Below, piece by piece: positions 9,916-58,781 of a DNA stretch of 62,791 nt. The DNA comes from an uncultured Clostridia bacterium. GTDB lineage: Bacteria > Bacillota > Clostridia > TANB77 > CAG-508. Numbering within the stretch: position 1 is the stretch's first letter; the number at the start of each line of letters is the position of its first letter. A model generated the notes under the pieces. It did not search any database. It had not been told where the DNA came from and saw only the letters and a program-made list of their open reading frames with translations. The DNA lies in the NCBI GenBank assembly GCA_944388605.1, contig CALXJJ010000008.1:1-62791 (forward strand), given 5' to 3'. Made by a program: the position numbers and the translations under genes.

Positions 9916-10185
9916 TTGCACACAAATTATTTCATAAATTTCAAGCATGAACAAATTAGCTAAAAATCCAAAGTGAAAAATTAAAATTTATGCAAAGTTT
10001 AAAAATTTTAGAGTTGTTCAAAGAACAAATCGGAAAGCCTTAAAATTTATATTAAATTTATCTTTCCTCGTTAGCTTTTTAGTAAATTTGTTCCTAAGCC
10101 AATCTTACGAAGTCAAAATTGTGTGCAGTCGTTAGAGCGTAGCGACTTTTCTACAATAGGAAAGGATAACTTTCCTATTGTAGAA
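9916..10185. repeat. Dispersed intergenic repeat: two module C copies head-to-head plus module B
   Basis: 9916-10019 is a diverged plus-orientation copy of module C (TTGCACACAAATT ... GAACAAATT ... GTTGTTC). 10023-10185 is a well-conserved copy in the opposite orientation: it starts with GAACAAATCGGAAAGCC, includes the GTTCCTAAGCC and GTGTGCAGTCGTTAGAG segments, and ends in module B, a 16-bp palindrome with arms TTCTACAATAGGAAAG (10149-10164) and 10170-10185. It fills the rplT to dipeptidase gap; no gene was found inside. Confidence 0.8.
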
Positions 10186-10216
10186 AAAAATTCCTAGAAA
10201 AGGAATGTGAGTAAAT

Positions 10217-11176
10217 ATGAAAATGATTATAGATGGACATTGTGATAGTATACAAAGAGCTTTTGATGAGAAGAAAAATATAAATGATAAAGAATTACAA
10301 TTTACATTTGAAAAGGCAAAAAAATTTTCTTCATATATTCAAATGTTAGCAGTTTTTGTAAATCCAACATATACAAGAAAAGAAAATGGAGGATTTATTA
10401 GAGCTAATAGTATTATTGATAAATTTTATTCTGAAAAAGGTAACATAATATTAGTAGAAAATGAAAATGATTTAAATAATGTAATAAATAAACAAAAATA
10501 TGGTGCAATATTAACTATAGAAAATGGAAGTGCAATAAGTAGTAATTTAGATAATATATGGAAATTAAAGCAAAGAGGGGTTAAAGTAATGTCAATTACT
10601 TGGAATTCTGATAATGAACTTGGATGTGGTGCTTTAAATAAAGAAAATGATACAGGTCTTACAAATTTAGGAAAAGAATATGTAAAGAAACTAGTAAAAG
10701 AAAATATTTTAGTAGATGTATCACATAGTTCATTAAAAACCTTTTATGATGTAATGGATATATCTAATGATAATGTTGTAGCAACACATTCATGTGTATA
10801 TAAAATATGTAACCATTTAAGAAATTTACGAGATGAACAGATAAAATTAATATCACAGAAAAATGGAATTATAGGAATTTGTTTTTGTAAAGAATTTTTA
10901 AGTAAGAAAAAAGCTAATGTGTTAGATATAGTAAAACATATAGATTATGTAGTAAATTTAGTGGGGATAGATTATGTTGGAATTGGGAGTGACTTTGATG
11001 GAATTAATAAAAATGATTTACCCGAAGGAATAAAAGATGTAACAAATATAGATTTAATAGAAAGAGAACTATATAAGATTGGTTATAAAGAAAATGATGT
11101 AGATAAGATAATGGGAGAAAATTGGATAAGGGTGTTAAATAATATTATGAAAGAAGAACAAATCGAAAAGACTTAA
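10217..11176 (+). CDS. Membrane dipeptidase family protein (peptidase M19)
   Basis: Zinc dipeptidase of the renal dipeptidase family, which hydrolyses dipeptides, including some with D-residues. Seen: the metal motif DGHCD (residues 6-10), TIENGSA with the bridging Glu (about 103), DVSHSS and ATHS with the later metal His residues (about 172 and 194), GIGSDFDGI (about 255) and the closing GENWIRVL. 319 aa is normal. No signal peptide, so it is cytoplasmic despite the family name. Monocistronic by context: an intergenic repeat lies on each side. Its last codons (EEQIEKT) and stop lie within the conserved end sequence of the downstream repeat (GAACAAATCGAAAAGACTTAA). It follows sequence close to the repeat's module B, so its promoter is unclear. 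Confidence 0.88.
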   Translation: MKMIIDGHCDSIQRAFDEKKNINDKELQFTFEKAKKFSSYIQMLAVFVNPTYTRKENGGFIRANSIIDKFYSEKGNIILVENENDLNNVINKQKYGAILTIENGSAISSNLDNIWKLKQRGVKVMSITWNSDNELGCGALNKENDTGLTNLGKEYVKKLVKENILVDVSHSSLKTFYDVMDISNDNVVATHSCVYKICNHLRNLRDEQIKLISQKNGIIGICFCKEFLSKKKANVLDIVKHIDYVVNLVGIDYVGIGSDFDGINKNDLPEGIKDVTNIDLIERELYKIGYKENDVDKIMGENWIRVLNNIMKEEQIEKT

Positions 11177-11290
11177 AATTTGTATAAATTTTAAGTCTTT
11201 CTGTAAATTGTTTTTTGTATAGGAAAAATTGAGTTTTTTCTACACAAAAACATTGCTTCGCTTTAATAGATACACACAAATTTTATATTA
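11155..11290. repeat. Dispersed repeat fragment with bidirectional terminator
   Basis: GAACAAATCGAAAAGACTTAAAATTT is the inverted right end of module C. Together with 11186-11200 it makes a perfect 15-bp hairpin (AAAGACTTAAAATTT at 11167-11181, loop GTAT) that can end transcription of both the dipeptidase and spoVAE. Module A-like sequence (TTTTTGTATAGGAAAAATTGAG) and CATTGC follow at about 11213-11255. Confidence 0.7.
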
Positions 11291-14302: not shown

Positions 14303-14370
14303 ATTGCACACAAATTAACAAAAATCCAAATAGAAAGTTTTAACTAGTACAAATTTTAAGGTTTTGCTAT
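14303..14370 (+). repeat. Dispersed repeat, partial module C
   Basis: Starts ATTGCACACAAATTAAC and ends AAATTTTAAGGTTTTGCTATTTGTTC, matching the two ends of module C. The right end overlaps the last codons and stop of the alpha-amylase reading frame on the other strand. Confidence 0.65.
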
Positions 14371-15837
14371 TTGTTCTCTTCATAATTATTTTCTTTTTTT
14401 ATCCAAACAGAAACACTACCACCATTAACATAAAAAACACCATTTCCATCACTATCTATGTACACAGGTTTAGAAATATTACCTGTACAGTCATATAATG
14501 TTTGATTAGCTAATCGTTTCCCTACATTCATTTTCTTAGATCCACCAGCTCCATCTGTTAATATAACAGCCATGCCAGAGTCAGGATGTTCATAATCTCC
14601 TTCACGAGTCCACCCAATAATATTTGGATGATCAAAATAATCAATTTGGTGACCATATGCAAAATATTTCCTTGCCCAAAGTAGTTTTTCTAATTTTTCT
14701 TTCATTGGGTGTACATTTTTTTCTGGAATACCATAATAATCTCCATAAAATATACAAGGCAAACCATCTTTTCTAAGTAAAATAAGAGCATAAGCTAATG
14801 GCTTAAACCATTCATGAATCCAAGATTGTAATGATTGGCCGTATTTCAGTATCATGATTGTCAACAAAAGTAACAGCTTTATCTGGATTTGACTTTACAA
14901 GTGTTCCATCAAAAATTTTCCTCATATCATATGTACCAGAACTATTGCATGCATTGAAAAAATTGTAATGTAAAGGAACATCGAATAAAGACATTAAGTT
15001 ATTTGTTTCTTCTATATACGAATTTAGTAAATTAACATTAGTTGACCAATATTCACCTACTGTAAACAATTTTTTTTCAGTCCAAGAACGTAAATCAGAA
15101 AGCCAATTAGTAAAAAAGTCTGCTCTTATATGCTTTACAGCATCAATTCTAAATCCATTTATATTTGTTATTGATAAATACCATTTTCCCCAGTTATTTA
15201 GTTCATTTACTACATCAACATTATTTAAGTCCACATCTGCACCCATTAAATAATCAAAATTTCCGTTTTCTAAATCTACTTCTTTGTCCCAATGTTTTCC
15301 ATAAAAAATATATATAGATTTTTTCTTTTTATATTCGTCCCAATCAACACCATGAAAATGTGTCCAATTCCATTTAAAATCTGAATATTTATTATTACGA
15401 CCATCAAAATTATATTTAGTCCAAGCAAGAATTTTTTGTGGTTTTGAAATAAATCTAGTTCTATTTGATGGATCATTTTCTATAGCGATAACTTCTTCTG
15501 TACCATCAGCTCCTAATCTATGATTAAAAACAATATCTGCAATAACATTTATATTATTTCCTTGCAAAGTTTTTATTGCTTTTAAATATTCATCTTTTGA
15601 TCCATATTTTGTACGTATACTACCTTTTTGATCAAATTCACCTAAATCGTACATATCATAAACTCCATAACCTACTTCATTAATACCACCTGTACCTTTA
15701 TATGCAGGAGGAAGCCAAATTGAAGTAATACCAATAGAACTTAAATATTGTGCATCTCTAATACATGAGTTCCATAGATTTGACTCTGGTTTTATATACC
15801 ATTCGAAATATTGCATCATTGTTTCATTTGTATTCAC
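14367..15837 (-). pseudogene. Cytoplasmic alpha-amylase (GH13), single-base frameshift
   Basis: Alpha-amylase of the liquefying Bacillus type without a signal peptide, acting on alpha-1,4-glucans. GTG 15837 follows GGAGG by 7 nt. The first frame (15837 to 14812) has TMMQYFEWY, region I DIVFNH, region II GFRIDAVKHI with the nucleophile Asp, region III GEYW with the acid Glu, and region IV FVDNHD. Directly after NHDTE the frame breaks: dropping one A of the GAAATA at about 14844-14846 restores DTEYGQSLQSW and joins the second frame (14867 to 14367), which carries LLRKDGLPCIFYGDYYG and domain C. Intact length would be about 489 aa. All catalytic residues lie before the break, but the last barrel strands and domain C do not. 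Either a young pseudogene or a sequence error. Confidence 0.85.
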
Positions 15838-20347: not shown

Positions 20348-20394
20348 ATTGCATACAAATTTATTAGGAAAATTTGTGTGCAATAAATTTTTTT
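20348..20394 (+). terminator. Terminator of gatCAB
   Basis: 15-bp stem ATTGCATACAAATTT (20348-20362) with AAATTTGTGTGCAAT (20370-20384), one G-T pair, then seven T. The arm sequence is the TTGCACACAAATTT motif of the dispersed repeat. Confidence 0.85.
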
Positions 20395-20622
20395 GTTGAA
20401 TAGGAAAAATCGAGTTTTTACTATTCAACAAAAAACGACATTGCACAGAAAAATCTTATTTATACAATAGGAAAGTTATCCTTTCCTATTGTATAAAAGT
20501 CGCTACACTCTAACGACTGCACACAATTTTACTTGCGTAAAATTGGCTTAGGAACAAATTTACTAAAAAGCCAACGAGAAAATATTAAATTAGTACAAAT
20601 TTTAAGGCTTTCCGATTTGTTC
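20393..20622 (+). repeat. Dispersed intergenic repeat, full A+B+C copy
   Basis: Reference copy. Module A: palindrome TTGTTGAATAG / CTATTCAACAA (20393-20403, 20421-20431), beginning within the T run of the gatB terminator. Module B: 15-bp palindrome, arms 20461-20475 and 20481-20495, loop TTATC. Module C: from AAAGTCGCTACACTCTAACG through GCACACAATTTTAC, GGCTTAGGAACAAATTTAC and AAGGCTTTCCGATTTGTTC to 20622. No coding frame. Other copies match it over long stretches in either orientation. Confidence 0.85.
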
Positions 20623-20650
20623 TTTAATTGTAAAATACATAAATTAATTA

Positions 20651-21961: not shown

Positions 21962-22069
21962 TTGCACACAATTTTGACTTTGCAAAATTTGGCTTAGGAA
22001 CAAATTTACTAAAAAACCAAAGATGAAAATGTAAAAATAGTATAAATTTTAAGATCTTTTAATTTGTTA
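21962..22069 (+). repeat. Dispersed repeat, module C only
   Basis: Begins TTGCACACAATTTTGACTTTG, contains TGGCTTAGGAACAAATTTACTAAA, ends near AATTTGTTA at 22069, four bases from the hpf stop codon on the other strand. Confidence 0.75.
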
Positions 22070-22072
22070 AAA

Positions 22073-30340: not shown

Positions 30341-30447
30341 AATTGCACATAATTTTGACTTCACAAAATTTACTTAGTAACAAATTTACTAAAAAGCCAA
30401 AGAAAAAGTTAAAGTTTGTATTAAATTAGGGCTTCCCGATTTGTTTT
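30341..30447 (+). repeat. Dispersed repeat, module C
   Basis: AATTGCACATAATTTTGACTTC at the left, AGTAACAAATTTACTAAAAAGCC in the middle, GGGCTTCCCGATTTGTTT at the right end; same orientation as the copy at 20393. Confidence 0.75.
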
Positions 30448-30454
30448 TATATTA

Positions 30455-33564: not shown

Positions 33565-33637
33565 TTGTCACAAATTTGCATAAATCAAGAGAAGGAATTT
33601 GAAATTTATGCAAATTTTAGGACTTCCCGATTTGATC
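33565..33637 (+). repeat. Dispersed repeat, partial module C
   Basis: TTGTCACAAATTTGC at the left and AAATTTTAGGACTTCCCGATTTGATC at the right. The right end supplies the last codons of the Cys-rich gene on the minus strand. Confidence 0.65.
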
Positions 33638-35669: not shown

Positions 35670-35932
35670 TTTTGAAAAAATAATAATCCTATGAAAAAGC
35701 TAAGTAGATAAAAAATATTATTATCAGAGAAAGAAGTATTTGCTGTAAGCTTCTTAATAAAATTTATCGAAATTCACTTTTGAGGACTTTATTTGAATTT
35801 ATAGTTAAGTAGAATAAAGCGGTTGCTACGTTATAGCATAATGAGGTCAGCCTTTGCTGATAAAGTTGGGTGGTAACACGGTTTTTATAGTCGTCCTAAT
35901 GTATAATATAATATATACATTAGGATATTTTT
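35670..35932 (+). ncRNA. T-box riboswitch, phenylalanine specifier (UUC)
   Basis: Contains the T-box core GGGTGGTAACACGG (about 35868-35882) and the downstream terminator TCCTAATGTATA / TATACATTAGGA (35894-35905, 35914-35925) with T tract. Stem I shows AGAGAAAG and, on its 3' side, GAAATTCAC in which TTC (35773-35775) is the likely specifier codon. Uncharged tRNA-Phe would favour antitermination. Its target is pheST, but a repeat of about 330 bp lies between. Confidence 0.88.
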
Positions 35933-36264
35933 GTTGAATAGGAAAAACTAGATTTTTTCTATTCAACAAAAATACAACATTGCACAGAAAAATTGCTATG
36001 CAATTTTTCGCGTCGACAAATCTTTACACTTCTTCGAGAACTTAAATATATATAGTTAAGTTAAAAAAGTAGAGAAAAGTTCTCGCGAAGCGAGATTTGT
36101 CGTACAATAGGAAAGTTATCCTTTCCTATTGTATAAAAGTCGCTACGATCTAACGGTTGCACACAATTTTGACTTCGTAAAATTGGCTTAGGAACAAATT
36201 TACTAAAAAGCTAACGAGGAAAGATAAAATTAGATTTCTCTTTGATTTTTTAATAGATTTGTTC
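35931..36264 (+). repeat. Dispersed repeat, full copy with an extra hairpin, inside the pheST leader
   Basis: Module A TTGTTGAATAGG / TATTCAACAA (35931-35969) starts in the T tract of the T-box terminator. Then comes TTGCACAGAAAAATTGC, an extra imperfect inverted repeat (CGACAAATCT 36014-36023 with AGATTTGTCG 36093-36102; GAGAACTT 36036-36043 with AAGTTCTC 36077-36084), module B (36103-36133) and module C to GATTTGTTC at 36264. No coding frame. It separates the T-box from pheS. Confidence 0.85.
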
Positions 36265-36286
36265 TGCACTAAATTTGTATGCAATA

Positions 36287-36328
36287 GGTTTATAGGTAAA
36301 TCCTTTATCAAAAACCTAAATATATTAT
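36287..36328 (+). repeat. Leader motif copy 1 (before pheS)
   Basis: GGTTTATAGGTAAATCC ... AAAAACCTAAATATATT, about 42 bp. A near copy lies before pheT at 37373-37413. Each places an AGGTT/AACCT-type hairpin shortly before the ribosome binding site. Confidence 0.55.
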
Positions 36329-36348
36329 ACAAGGAATGATTAATTTTT

Positions 36349-37368
36349 ATGAAAGAGAAAATATTAAACTTAAAAGAACAAGCAATAAAAGAAATAAGAC
36401 AAAGTAATAGCGAAAAAGATTTAAATGACATAAGAGTGAAATATTTAGGAAAAAAAGGAGAATTAACTTTAATATTAAAAGGAATGGGTACTCTTTTACC
36501 AGAAGAAAGACCTGCAGTAGGTAGTTTGGTTAATGAAGTGCGCGAGAAAATTGAAACTGAATTGAAATTAAAAACTAATGATTTTAAAGAACAAGAATTA
36601 CAAAATAAATTAAAAAATGAAAATATTGATATAACATTACCAAGCAAGAGAACTAAATTAGGTTCAATACATCCTATAACACAAATTATTGAAGATGTTA
36701 AAGAAATATTTTTAGGTATGGGATATGAAATTGCAGATGGACCAGAAATTGAACTTGCAAAATATAATTTTGATAAATTAAATACACCAGAAGATCATCC
36801 AGCAAGAGACATACAAGATACATTTTATATTACAGAAGATATACTTTTAAGATCACAAACATCTCCAATTCAAGCAAGAGTGATGGAAACTAAACAACCA
36901 CCTATAAAGATAATATGTCCTGGTGCTGTATACCGCTCTGATAGCGTTGATGCAACACATTCTCCAGTATTTCATCAAGTAGAAGGTTTAGTTGTAGATA
37001 AAAATATTTCAATGGCAGATTTAAAAGGAACATTAGAAATGTTCGCAAAAAAATGTTTAGGAGAAAAAACTAAAATTCGTTTTAGACCACATCATTTTCC
37101 TTTTACAGAGCCATCAGCAGAAGCAGATGTTTCTTGTTTTGTTTGTGGAGGAAAAGGTTGTAGAGTATGTAAAGGAGAAGGTTGGATAGAATTGTTAGGA
37201 TGTGGTATGGTTCATCCCAAAGTATTAATTAATTGTGGAATAGATCCAAATGAATATACTGGATTTGCTTTTGGTTTTGGAGTTGAAAGAATTGCAATGG
37301 CTAAATTCGGAATTGATGATTTACGTTTGTTATATGAGAATGATATAAGATTTTTAAAGCAATTTTAA
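36349..37368 (+). CDS. pheS: Phenylalanyl-tRNA synthetase alpha subunit
   Basis: Catalytic subunit of the alpha2-beta2 enzyme that charges tRNA-Phe. 339 aa: N-terminal coiled coil (1-90), then class II core with [46 protein letters not shown] (motif 2 region), [18 protein letters not shown] and the motif 3 [13 protein letters not shown]. The site AAGGAATG precedes ATG 36349 at 13 nt. It lies about 420 bp downstream of the T-box because of an inserted repeat. Confidence 0.97.
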
Positions 37369-42847: not shown

Positions 42848-43633
42848 ATGACAATATTACAAGCATTAGTATTAGGAATAGTACAAGGATTAACAGAACT
42901 ATTGCCGATATCAAGCTCAGCACATTTAACAATATTACCATGGTTGTTTAATTGGACACAAATACCAGAAAGCTTTGATGTAGCCTTGCATTTTGGAACT
43001 TTACTAGCGATAGGAATATTTTTTGCAAAAGATTGGATACAATTAATAAAAGGCGGATATAATCAAATTATAAAAAAAGAAAAAAGTTTTGAAGGAAAAA
43101 TGTTTTGGTATTTAGTAATTGCTACAATACCGGGTGGAATAATAGGATTTATATTAGATACGTTTGTGGGAGATACATTAAAAGGTCCTACTCTTATTGC
43201 TATAGCATTAATTATAATGGGTATAATTTTATATATAGTCGATAAAAAGTGTCCATCAGATACTTCCTATGAAAAAATGAATTTTAAACAAACTTTTTTA
43301 ATAGGATTATCTCAAGCACTTGCTTTCATACCAGGAGTTTCAAGATCAGGAGTTACAATGACAACTGCAAGATTAATGGGAGTAAAAAGAGAATCAGCAG
43401 CAAAATATTCTTTTATGCTATCAGCTCCAATTGTATTAGGTGCCACAATATTCAAAATTAAAGATTTTGTTTTTAATATTCCATTTATTATTGGAGTATT
43501 AGCAAGTTTTATTGTCGGAATAATAGTTATTAAATTTTTATTAAAATATTTGCAAAAAGGTAATTTTAAAATATTTGCAATTTATAGAGTTATATTTGGA
43601 ATAATTATTTTAGCTAAAATAATTATTGGATAA
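42848..43633 (+). CDS. uppP: Undecaprenyl-diphosphatase (BacA/UppP)
   Basis: Membrane enzyme recycling undecaprenyl pyrophosphate to the carrier lipid used for peptidoglycan, giving bacitracin tolerance. 261 aa with about eight hydrophobic segments: GIVQGLTELLPISSSAHLTI at residues 11-30 with the catalytic Glu, HFGTLLAI, FIPGVSRSGVTMTTARLMG near 165. The site is GGGAAG. Followed by a terminator, then a repeat. Confidence 0.96.
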   Translation: MTILQALVLGIVQGLTELLPISSSAHLTILPWLFNWTQIPESFDVALHFGTLLAIGIFFAKDWIQLIKGGYNQIIKKEKSFEGKMFWYLVIATIPGGIIGFILDTFVGDTLKGPTLIAIALIIMGIILYIVDKKCPSDTSYEKMNFKQTFLIGLSQALAFIPGVSRSGVTMTTARLMGVKRESAAKYSFMLSAPIVLGATIFKIKDFVFNIPFIIGVLASFIVGIIVIKFLLKYLQKGNFKIFAIYRVIFGIIILAKIIIG

Positions 43634-43639
43634 CAAAAT

Positions 43640-43688
43640 CGGAAAATCTTAAGAACTAATATGTTTTTTAAGATTTTTCGTTTTTTTT
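43640..43688 (+). terminator. Terminator of uppP
   Basis: 13-bp stem CGGAAAATCTTAA (43640-43652) with TTAAGATTTTTCG (43668-43680), followed by eight T that run into repeat module A. Confidence 0.88.
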
Positions 43689-43752
43689 GTTGAATAGGAA
43701 AAACTCGATTTTTCCTATTCAACAAAAAAACATTGCACAGAAAAATTGCTAT
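43687..43752 (+). repeat. Dispersed repeat, module A only
   Basis: Perfect 17-bp palindrome TTGTTGAATAGGAAAAA (43687-43703) / 43709-43725, loop CTCGA, then CATTGCACAGAAAAATTGC. Starts in the terminator T tract of uppP. Confidence 0.8.
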
Positions 43753-54148: not shown

Positions 54149-54177
54149 ATTATACAATTATTATTATACAATAGGAA
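54149..54177 (-). promoter_or_regulatory. Possible tRNA-Gln promoter overlapping repeat module B
   Basis: TATAAT (54154-54149) lies 15 bp before the tRNA; a -35 at 17 bp would be TTCCTA (54177-54172), within the module B palindrome. Weak -35. Confidence 0.35.
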
Positions 54178-54245
54178 AGGATTAGTTTCCTATTGTATAA
54201 TAGTTACTTTACTCAAATAGTTGTACATAAATTATTTCACAATAA
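54164..54245 (+). repeat. Dispersed repeat: module B plus decayed module C start
   Basis: 15-bp palindrome TTATACAATAGGAAA (54164-54178) / 54186-54200, then TAGTTACTTTACTCAAATAGTTGTACATAAATTATTTC, a diverged match to the start of module C. Confidence 0.65.
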
Positions 54246-58654: not shown

Positions 58655-58756
58655 TTATAATATAGGAAAATCGAGCTTTTCCTATATTATAATGAATATC
58701 GCTCTGCTCTAACGATTGCACACAATTTTACTTATGTAAAATTGTGTGCAATCGTT
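58655..58756 (+). repeat. Dispersed repeat: module A-like palindrome plus module C start
   Basis: TTATAATATAGGAAAA / TTTTCCTATATTATAA around TCGAG (58655-58692), then GAATATCGCTCTGCTCTAACGATTGCACACAATTTTAC. The tail is a perfect 21-bp palindrome (58711-58731, 58736-58756, loop TTAT). It could end transcripts from both sides (ylmH and the transglycosylase). Confidence 0.75.
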
Positions 58757-58781
58757 AATAAACTAAAAAATCATATTGCTT

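What the first reader, a model, noticed from the sequence alone, without database searches (positions are those of the whole stretch)
20348..20622. A modular family of dispersed intergenic repeats across the window
About a dozen related copies: 9916-10185, 11155-11290, 14303-14370, 20393-20622, 21962-22069, 30341-30447, 33565-33637, 35931-36264, 43687-43752, 54164-54245, 58655-58756, 62443-62476. Three modules occur alone or together: A (palindrome TTGTTGAATAGG...), B (palindrome ACAATAGGAAAG...CTTTCCTATTGT) and C (about 125 bp from TCGCTAC..CTAACG to GATTTGTTC). Palindromes with high identity in both orientations suggest a MITE or REP/RAYT-like mobile family with the transposase elsewhere, or an RNA-based function. 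I cannot name it as a known family.
Basis: partly seen in the sequence, partly recalled or inferred. Interest (0 to 1): 0.72.

Follow-up and report, generated by a model that had tools for sequence, protein, structure and literature searches.

The report
Hairpin mobile elements behind gene terminators
Small non-coding hairpin-rich DNA elements (about 165 bases) have multiplied across the genomes of uncultured gut Clostridia by inserting, always the same way round, just behind the stop signals of genes, and part of each copy mirrors the sequence it landed next to.

Summary
The repeats are real, but A, B and C are not free modules. B plus C is one element of about 165 nt (left hairpin SL1, small SL1b, SL2, long right hairpin SL3). 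A is the SL1 of a sister element of about 175 nt. The genome holds up to 143 model matches to the C-type (47 above 165 bits, nearly full length); the family occurs in 81 of 292 genomes of the same bacterial family. Copies sit 3' of intrinsic-terminator hairpins and their T-tract, in one orientation, SL1 against the T-tract (stable left-flank fold 48 of 63, right flank 13 of 63, control T-runs 18%). An orthologous gap is filled in some genomes and empty in most. The inner arm of SL1 is complementary to the LEFT HOST FLANK, also between copies with identical bodies: arm changes arise independently and match their own flank (15 of 17). So an arm inside the element is rewritten to fit each target, most simply by hairpin template switching. 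No terminal inverted repeats; exact empty sites were not obtained. The enzyme is unknown: Y1 transposase and reverse transcriptase are both patchy among element-rich genomes. It works most like a non-autonomous IS200/IS605-type or group IIC-intron-like element; membership in either is not shown.

The parts
20456..20625 (+). Full C-type element: SL1 20459-20497, SL1b about 20498-20518, SL2 20524-20545, SL3 20550-20624
   Evidence: (fold -46.1 kcal/mol, z -7.4)
20493..20498 (+). Inner arm of SL1 (ATAAAA), the part complementary to the left flank in most copies
20348..20389 (+). Hairpin (TTGCATACAAATTT..AAATTTGTGTGCAA) followed by a T-run: terminator-like target directly left of the A-type copy
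   Evidence: sequence
20390..20455 (+). A-type element, cut short (SL1 plus start of body)
10020..10189 (-). Full C-type element, reverse orientation, about 30 nt upstream of the ORF at 10217; its left flank is a short hairpin plus TTTTTTC, arm AGAAAA matches
9916..10019 (+). SL1-less, diverged relative (TTGCACACAA ... GTTGTTC)
   Evidence: by eye
11155..11290 (.). Diverged pieces: SL3-like end (GAACAAATCG..) and A-type SL1-like hairpin
14303..14377 (+). Short form lacking SL1 and the SL2 hairpin
21962..22070 (+). C-type body without SL1
30341..30448 (+). C-type body without SL1, about 40 nt behind a terminator-like hairpin (CCCCAAGG..CCTTGGGG)
33565..33637 (+). Short diverged relative (SL3-like)
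   Evidence: by eye
35682..35901 (+). T-box leader whose terminator is the target of the A-type copy that follows
   Evidence: Rfam RF00230, 121.9 bits
35928..36102 (+). Full A-type element between the T-box terminator and the ORF at 36349
36096..36266 (+). C-type element directly behind the right end of the A-type copy
43684..43752 (+). A-type element, cut short, directly behind the terminator of the ORF 42848-43633
54164..54245 (+). SL1 with diverged remainder
58655..58756 (+). SL1 plus start of body and a long SL2-type palindrome, no SL3
62443..62476 (+). Short remnant
   Evidence: (D18), by eye

Best explanation
A family of non-autonomous, non-coding mobile elements (about 130-200 nt; SL1, optional SL1b, SL2, SL3; no terminal inverted repeats) that is inserted in one orientation immediately 3' of a hairpin plus T-tract, above all intrinsic transcription terminators, and also behind the SL3 end of earlier copies (...TTTGTTC|T). 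Shown: copy number, architecture, orientation, target class, presence/absence. Inferred: it moves as single-stranded, folded DNA through an enzyme acting in trans, in the manner of IS200/IS605 elements: the T-tract target pairs with an A-rich inner arm of SL1 (ATAAAAG, 5' of the SL1b/SL2 hairpin) and the right end TTGTTC pairs with GAACAA at the 5' foot of SL3. Shown: the inner arm differs between copies with otherwise identical bodies and then matches each copy's own flank. Inferred: this rewriting is template switching in the SL1 hairpin, which copies the flank into the inner arm. Insertion behind terminators spares genes, which would explain the high copy numbers tolerated.
For: Sharp ends and 92-100% identity to the query among 30 aligned copies; 143 matches in own genome; 81 of 292 family genomes, 24 of 39 genera. 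Left-flank fold mean -12.5 vs shuffled -4.1 vs right flank -4.6 kcal/mol; <= -6 in 48 of 63 left and 13 of 63 right; control T-runs 40 of 224 intergenic. Upstream ORF in the element's direction in 48 of 63. tRNA genes lie just upstream in L016, L018, L042, L130; T-box in the window. Flank-arm complementarity: pos 2 57 of 63 vs 41.8 expected, pos 3 54 vs 46.1, 0 of 5000 permutations each; 41 further copies, pos 3, 4, 6: 40, 40, 36 vs 15.6, 25.4, 23.4, 0 of 2000 each. Guide G with flank C: 10,1,3,49 (Fisher 2e-8); the 7 G copies among 51 need 7 independent changes. Identical bodies, different arms each matching own flank. SL2/SL3 compensatory pairs: 15 of 28 pairs of the consensus fold. SL1 loop inverted in 3 of 63 copies, a known by-product of template switching (PMC8604942, passages read). 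spoVS gap: C-type in G000, A-type in G019, partial in G115, no match in 25 of 28.
Against: No Y1 transposase in the window's genome (97.9% complete) and in 6 of 17 element-rich genomes, G000 included; no Y1 element with these ends found. In IS200/IS605 the left guide lies 5' of the left hairpin; here SL1 stands between target and A-rich arm. 15 of 63 left flanks have no stable fold; some copies lie a few bases behind a stop codon without hairpin. 10 of 24 copies whose target asks for an arm change were not rewritten, and these are not younger (p 0.50 and 0.24), which does not favour slow post-insertion rewriting. No base-exact empty site was obtained, so the left boundary (about T|ACAATAGG) and absence of target duplication are estimates.
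Confidence: 0.5

Rival explanations
1. RNA-mediated retro-insertion in the manner of group IIC introns: a folded element RNA pairs its A-rich arm with the terminator T-tract and is copied into DNA by a reverse transcriptase in trans (a group II-type or the resident DGR reverse transcriptase).
For: Same target class and same orientation as group IIC introns, which use a DNA hairpin such as gene terminators plus a short pairing (PMC3898094, passages); DGR retrohoming also uses a DNA hairpin (PMC3240598, abstract and outline). Conserved folds. The window's genome has a DGR reverse transcriptase.
Against: No RVT_1 match in 3 of 16 element-rich genomes (G117, G159, G179); reverse transcriptases also occur in genomes without detected elements. 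The only one in the window's genome is part of a DGR. No Rfam group II match in the element. No adenine-only substitution pattern noticed in the alignment (by eye).
Confidence: 0.17
2. Moved by another, untested recombinase (for example an IS110-type bridge-RNA recombinase, or a serine or tyrosine recombinase), the folded element being the substrate or encoding a guide RNA.
For: No terminal inverted repeats; guide-like complementarity to target; neither Y1 nor reverse transcriptase is found in all element-rich genomes.
Against: No such enzyme searched for; no recurrent gene next to elements in different genomes. Nothing known of bridge RNAs predicts an arm directly continuous with the end hairpin (recalled).
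Confidence: 0.2
3. Guide-led targeting without rewriting: copies inherit the arm and can only enter targets that match it.
For: Arm and flank match in most copies.
Against: Copies with 0-1 body differences carry different arms, each fitting its own flank better, e.g. C21:4410 vs C6:25457 (1 difference, two arm changes); every one of the 7 G arms is a separate change on the body tree, equal to the highest of 98 variable body columns.
Confidence: 0.1
4. A fixed cis-regulatory RNA or extended terminator rather than a mobile element.
For: Position behind terminators and, in the window, between a T-box terminator and its gene; conserved folds.
Against: Present/absent and of different subfamilies at the same orthologous gap; tandem and nested copies; a copy in reverse orientation in front of an ORF (10020-10189).
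Confidence: 0.03

Closest known systems
IS200/IS605 family and its non-autonomous derivatives (Y1 HUH transposase)
   Same: Hairpins at both ends, no terminal inverted repeats, oriented insertion 3' of a T-rich target, a target-pairing A-rich stretch at the left and a pairing pair GAACAA/TTGTTC at the right end; 4 of 8 IS200-type loci inspected in this bacterial order also lie directly behind a terminator (by eye).
   Different: No transposase found with these ends; guide arm separated from the end by SL1 and rewritten; 3-4 hairpins.
Group IIC introns
   Same: Insert 3' of intrinsic terminators, 5' end against the T-tract, short pairing with the target.
   Different: No ribozyme domains (no Rfam match), no intron-encoded protein, far smaller.
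REP/BIME with RAYT (TnpA-REP)
   Same: Dispersed intergenic palindromes at over 100 copies, modular.
   Different: No RAYT in the window's genome; RAYT-size Y1 loci of relatives do not carry these hairpins; target and orientation rule differ.
Pneumococcal BOX, RUP and SPRITE
   Same: Modular folded repeats, clustered and inserted into one another, probably parasitic (PMC3049150, passages).
   Different: SPRITE resembles a terminator itself; here the element sits behind host terminators and has a flank-matching arm. BOX/RUP have terminal inverted repeats (same passages).
Quasipalindrome template switching
   Same: Arm homogenisation and spacer inversion (PMC8604942 passages; PMC8794818 start of abstract in listing).
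   Different: Here the donor of the change is host sequence next to a mobile element.

Membership tests
IS200/IS605-type element (non-autonomous) | Y1 HUH transposase mobilises it, encoded by an element with the same ends | tested here: not met
   0 matches in G000; absent in 6 of 17 rich genomes; 8 IS200-type loci have other ends (62, 94). MAGs can lack short multicopy IS genes, so absence is weak.
IS200/IS605-type element (non-autonomous) | Subterminal hairpins, no terminal inverted repeats, oriented insertion 3' of a short target | tested here: met
IS200/IS605-type element (non-autonomous) | Left guide just 5' of the end hairpin pairs with target; right guide 5' of hairpin pairs with right end | tested here: inconclusive
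   A-rich arm pairs with flank (38, 80) but lies 3' of SL1; GAACAA/TTGTTC nearly invariant (82)
IS200/IS605-type element (non-autonomous) | No target duplication, exact joining | tested here: inconclusive
   No base-exact empty site (77, 79)
Group II (IIC) intron | Ribozyme domains, domain V | tested here: not met
   No Rfam group II match
Group II (IIC) intron | Inserts 3' of intrinsic terminators in one orientation | tested here: met
Group II (IIC) intron | Intron-encoded reverse transcriptase available in the genome | tested here: not met
   Only a DGR reverse transcriptase in G000 (23, 26, 40); none in 3 of 16 (68)
REP/RAYT | RAYT gene in the genome flanked by the repeat | tested here: not met
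Classic MITE | Terminal inverted repeats | tested here: not met
   Left end TACAATAGG, right end CGATTTGTTC
Classic MITE | Target site duplication | tested here: inconclusive
Known Rfam RNA | Match above a curated threshold | tested here: not met

The most novel reading that the evidence does not exclude
A self-retargeting mobile element: at (or soon after) each insertion the target's T-tract is copied into the element's own guide arm, so that every copy becomes re-matched to where it sits and can leave again or seed new sites of that kind; the enzyme is of a kind not yet linked to such elements.
Probability: 0.15. Interest if true: 0.85.

Novelty: new variant of a known kind. Interest (0 to 1): 0.55.

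Why it matters
It adds a widespread, so far unnamed family of terminator-targeting non-coding mobile elements to the genomes of uncultured gut Clostridia, and a natural experiment with up to a hundred or more copies in one genome for how a hairpin arm is rewritten from neighbouring DNA. It also bears on why several unrelated mobile elements (group IIC introns, IS200-type elements of these same bacteria, and these) converge on terminators. Copies placed between a T-box terminator and its gene may alter the leader. I found no description in print in the searches; only open-licence papers were searched.

Tried and rejected
Resident reverse transcriptase as mobiliser: the only RVT_1 protein of G000 belongs to a DGR (Avd, MutS-I-like ORF, variable protein); a C-type copy lies about 1 kb behind it, read as chance. 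RAYT-size Y1 proteins of relatives: their flanks carry other hairpins. Recurrent neighbour genes as mobiliser: all-against-all of ORFs around elements gave only ORFs inside the element and shared host genes. Phage and plasmid records: no match; the one viral contig hit (L288) is a chance match inside a coding region. Larger, ORF-bearing versions: none seen in the loci read, not searched systematically. Empty sites: the second copy of G294 is absent in G194 together with flanking sequence, so not clean; the G182/G054 difference is another repeat family; L183/L271 is near-clean at 78% identity only. Age test of rewriting: no difference. Truncation polarity as a sign of reverse transcription: SL1-less copies mostly do not abut a terminator (by eye); no conclusion.

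Rows dropped before counts: flank analysis used 71 of 143 R1 matches (those of at least 89.7 bits, less C2:30501, not fetched), of which 8 lacked a recognisable SL1, leaving 63; tree and pair comparison used 51 of 63 (at least 140 bits); the family-wide test kept 41 of 93 rows after the hairpin filter and removal of duplicates; model searches used 80 of 102 genome contigs stretches, plus L288 or the window. In one search only 9 candidates per genome were scored, so copy numbers there are lower bounds.

Full report
What is there. The window is contig C8 of a 1.31-Mb, 38-contig genome (26% GC in the window, 97.9% complete) with no congener held. Oriented alignment of 30 copies shows a discrete element with sharp ends: left TATACAATAGGAAAG, right CGATTTGTTC, then unrelated flanks. 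A covariance model of it (R1) gives 143 matches at E<=0.01 in the genome (150 of 3149 candidates scored; 47 above 165 bits).

Anatomy. The C-type folds as RNA far better than shuffled sequence (z -7.4 and -7.6 on the two strands): SL1 (perfect 17-bp hairpin, core ATAGGAAAG..CTTTCCTAT), SL1b (GTCG..CGAC), SL2 (CAATTTTAC..GTAAAATTG) and SL3 (AGGAACAAAT ... ATTTGTTCT). Across 35 copies from many genomes, 15 of 28 predicted pairs show at least one double change that keeps the pair, notably in SL2 and in the inner part of SL3, while GAACAA/TTGTTC at the foot of SL3 is nearly invariant. No Rfam family matches above its threshold.

Where it sits. In 71 of the 143 matches read with 70 nt of left flank, SL1 typically abuts a stem-loop plus T-run, that is an intrinsic terminator on the same strand. 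For the 63 with intact SL1, the 53 nt left of the element fold at -12.5 kcal/mol on average (shuffled -4.1; right flank -4.6); 48 of 63 are at or below -6 against 13 of 63 on the right. T-runs elsewhere in the window reach that value in 40 of 224 intergenic and 16 of 132 sampled coding cases (18% and 12%). The nearest upstream ORF points the element's way in 48 of 63. tRNA genes lie just upstream in the loci L016, L018, L042 and L130, and the A-type copy at 35928 follows a T-box leader and lies before the ORF at 36349. Several copies lie directly behind the SL3 end of another copy (...TTTGTTC|TACAATAGG or ...GATTTGTCC|TACAATAGG), so the end of one element is itself a target. The copy at 10020-10189 sits on the reverse strand just in front of the ORF at 10217, behind a hairpin plus T-run that is unlikely to end a transcript; this suggests that the structure rather than termination is recognised (inference). 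The same rule is visible in other genomes of the family (left -11.9 vs shuffled -5.2 in 41 copies; right -6.4 in 92; sequences).

Mobility. At the spoVS gap (identity of the gene confirmed by Pfam) a C-type copy is present in G000, an A-type in G019 and a partial one in G115, and neither model matches in that gap in the other 25 of 28 genomes, apart from a weak reverse-strand hit in G294, which by eye holds a remnant. Different subfamilies thus entered the same terminator independently.

An arm that follows the target. Outside the SL1 core the left arm is host flank and the right arm is element. The two are complementary more often than in permuted pairs: position 2, 57 of 63 against 41.8; position 3, 54 against 46.1; none of 5000 permutations reached either. 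In 41 further copies, from other genomes, positions 3, 4 and 6 (counted from TAGGAAA) give 40, 40 and 36 against 15.6, 25.4 and 23.4. In the own genome a G at arm position 2 goes with a flank C (10, 1, 3, 49; Fisher 2e-8). Copies with identical bodies carry different arms that fit their own flanks: C2:47950 and C1:42380 (G, flank C) against C20:3798 and C26:16365 (T, flank A); C21:4410 and C6:25457 differ by one body position and by two arm positions. On a body tree of 51 copies the seven G arms need seven changes, equal to the most homoplastic of 98 variable body columns (mean 2.1). Of 17 copies with an unusual arm base at positions 2-6, 15 match their own flank. Inheritance of a guide cannot easily give this; the arm is rewritten from the flank. 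Hairpin template switching is a known way (arm homogenisation with spacer inversion; PMC8604942, passages), and 3 of 63 copies indeed have the SL1 loop inverted. Against a slow process after insertion: 10 of 24 targets that ask for a change were not rewritten, and these copies do not look younger (p 0.50 and 0.24). Whether rewriting belongs to insertion is open.

Mechanism. The layout is that of a single-strand transposon: a target that pairs with an A-rich stretch near the left end, and a right end TTGTTC that pairs with GAACAA at the foot of SL3. PMC6006769 (passages) describes IS200/IS605 ends in a similar way, with the guide 5' of the hairpin foot. Here the A-rich arm is 5' of SL1b/SL2, but SL1 lies between it and the target. 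Four of eight IS200-type loci of this bacterial order also lie directly behind a terminator (by eye), so the niche is shared. But Y1 transposase is absent from G000 and five more of 17 element-rich genomes, and reverse transcriptase from 3 of 16; G179 lacks both. Incomplete assembly may hide short multicopy IS genes, so this does not exclude Y1, but membership is not shown. Group IIC introns share target and orientation (PMC3898094, passages) but not anatomy. I put an IS200/IS605-like route first, a retro route and an untested recombinase as rivals.

Verdict. New variant of a known kind: a non-autonomous, multi-hairpin, terminator-targeting element with a flank-matched arm.

Noticed in passing
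G000:C31, locus L071 3236-5876 (-): A diversity-generating retroelement: reverse transcriptase (334 aa), bAvd (PF22296), a MutS-domain-I-like ORF, a 201-aa variable protein and a likely template repeat with an AAC-rich stretch behind the reverse transcriptase.
   Followed up: partly
L059, L060, L063, L291: IS200-type TnpA elements of the same bacterial order often lie directly behind intrinsic terminators, one behind a tRNA gene's terminator.
   Followed up: partly
window 35682-36349; also L041: Elements inserted between a T-box terminator (35682-35901) and the downstream ORF; L041 looks like a second such case before an aspartyl-tRNA synthetase-like start (by eye, not above the Rfam cut-off in the fragment).
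   Followed up: partly
L361 1953-2260 (G294) and many places in G194/G294: Another dispersed repeat of up to about 290 nt at 83-96% identity with many copies in two congeners.
   Followed up: no
L381 about 2562-2756 vs L380, L382: A different palindrome-like repeat (GTTACACTTCAGTCTAAGATATATG ...) present in G182 and absent, or nearly so, at the same place in G054 and G131.
   Followed up: no
L348 about 900-1010 (G208) vs L345 (G159): A further small repeat inserted into SL1 of an element in one of two closely related species.
   Followed up: no
window 20348-20389, 58699-58757; L056: SL2-only palindromes (TTGCACACAAATTT..AAATTTGTGTGCAA) occur as separate short repeats.
   Followed up: no
G000:C9:23540 (-): An SL1-less copy that begins at TTGCACACA directly behind a terminator T-run, unlike most SL1-less copies.
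   Followed up: no
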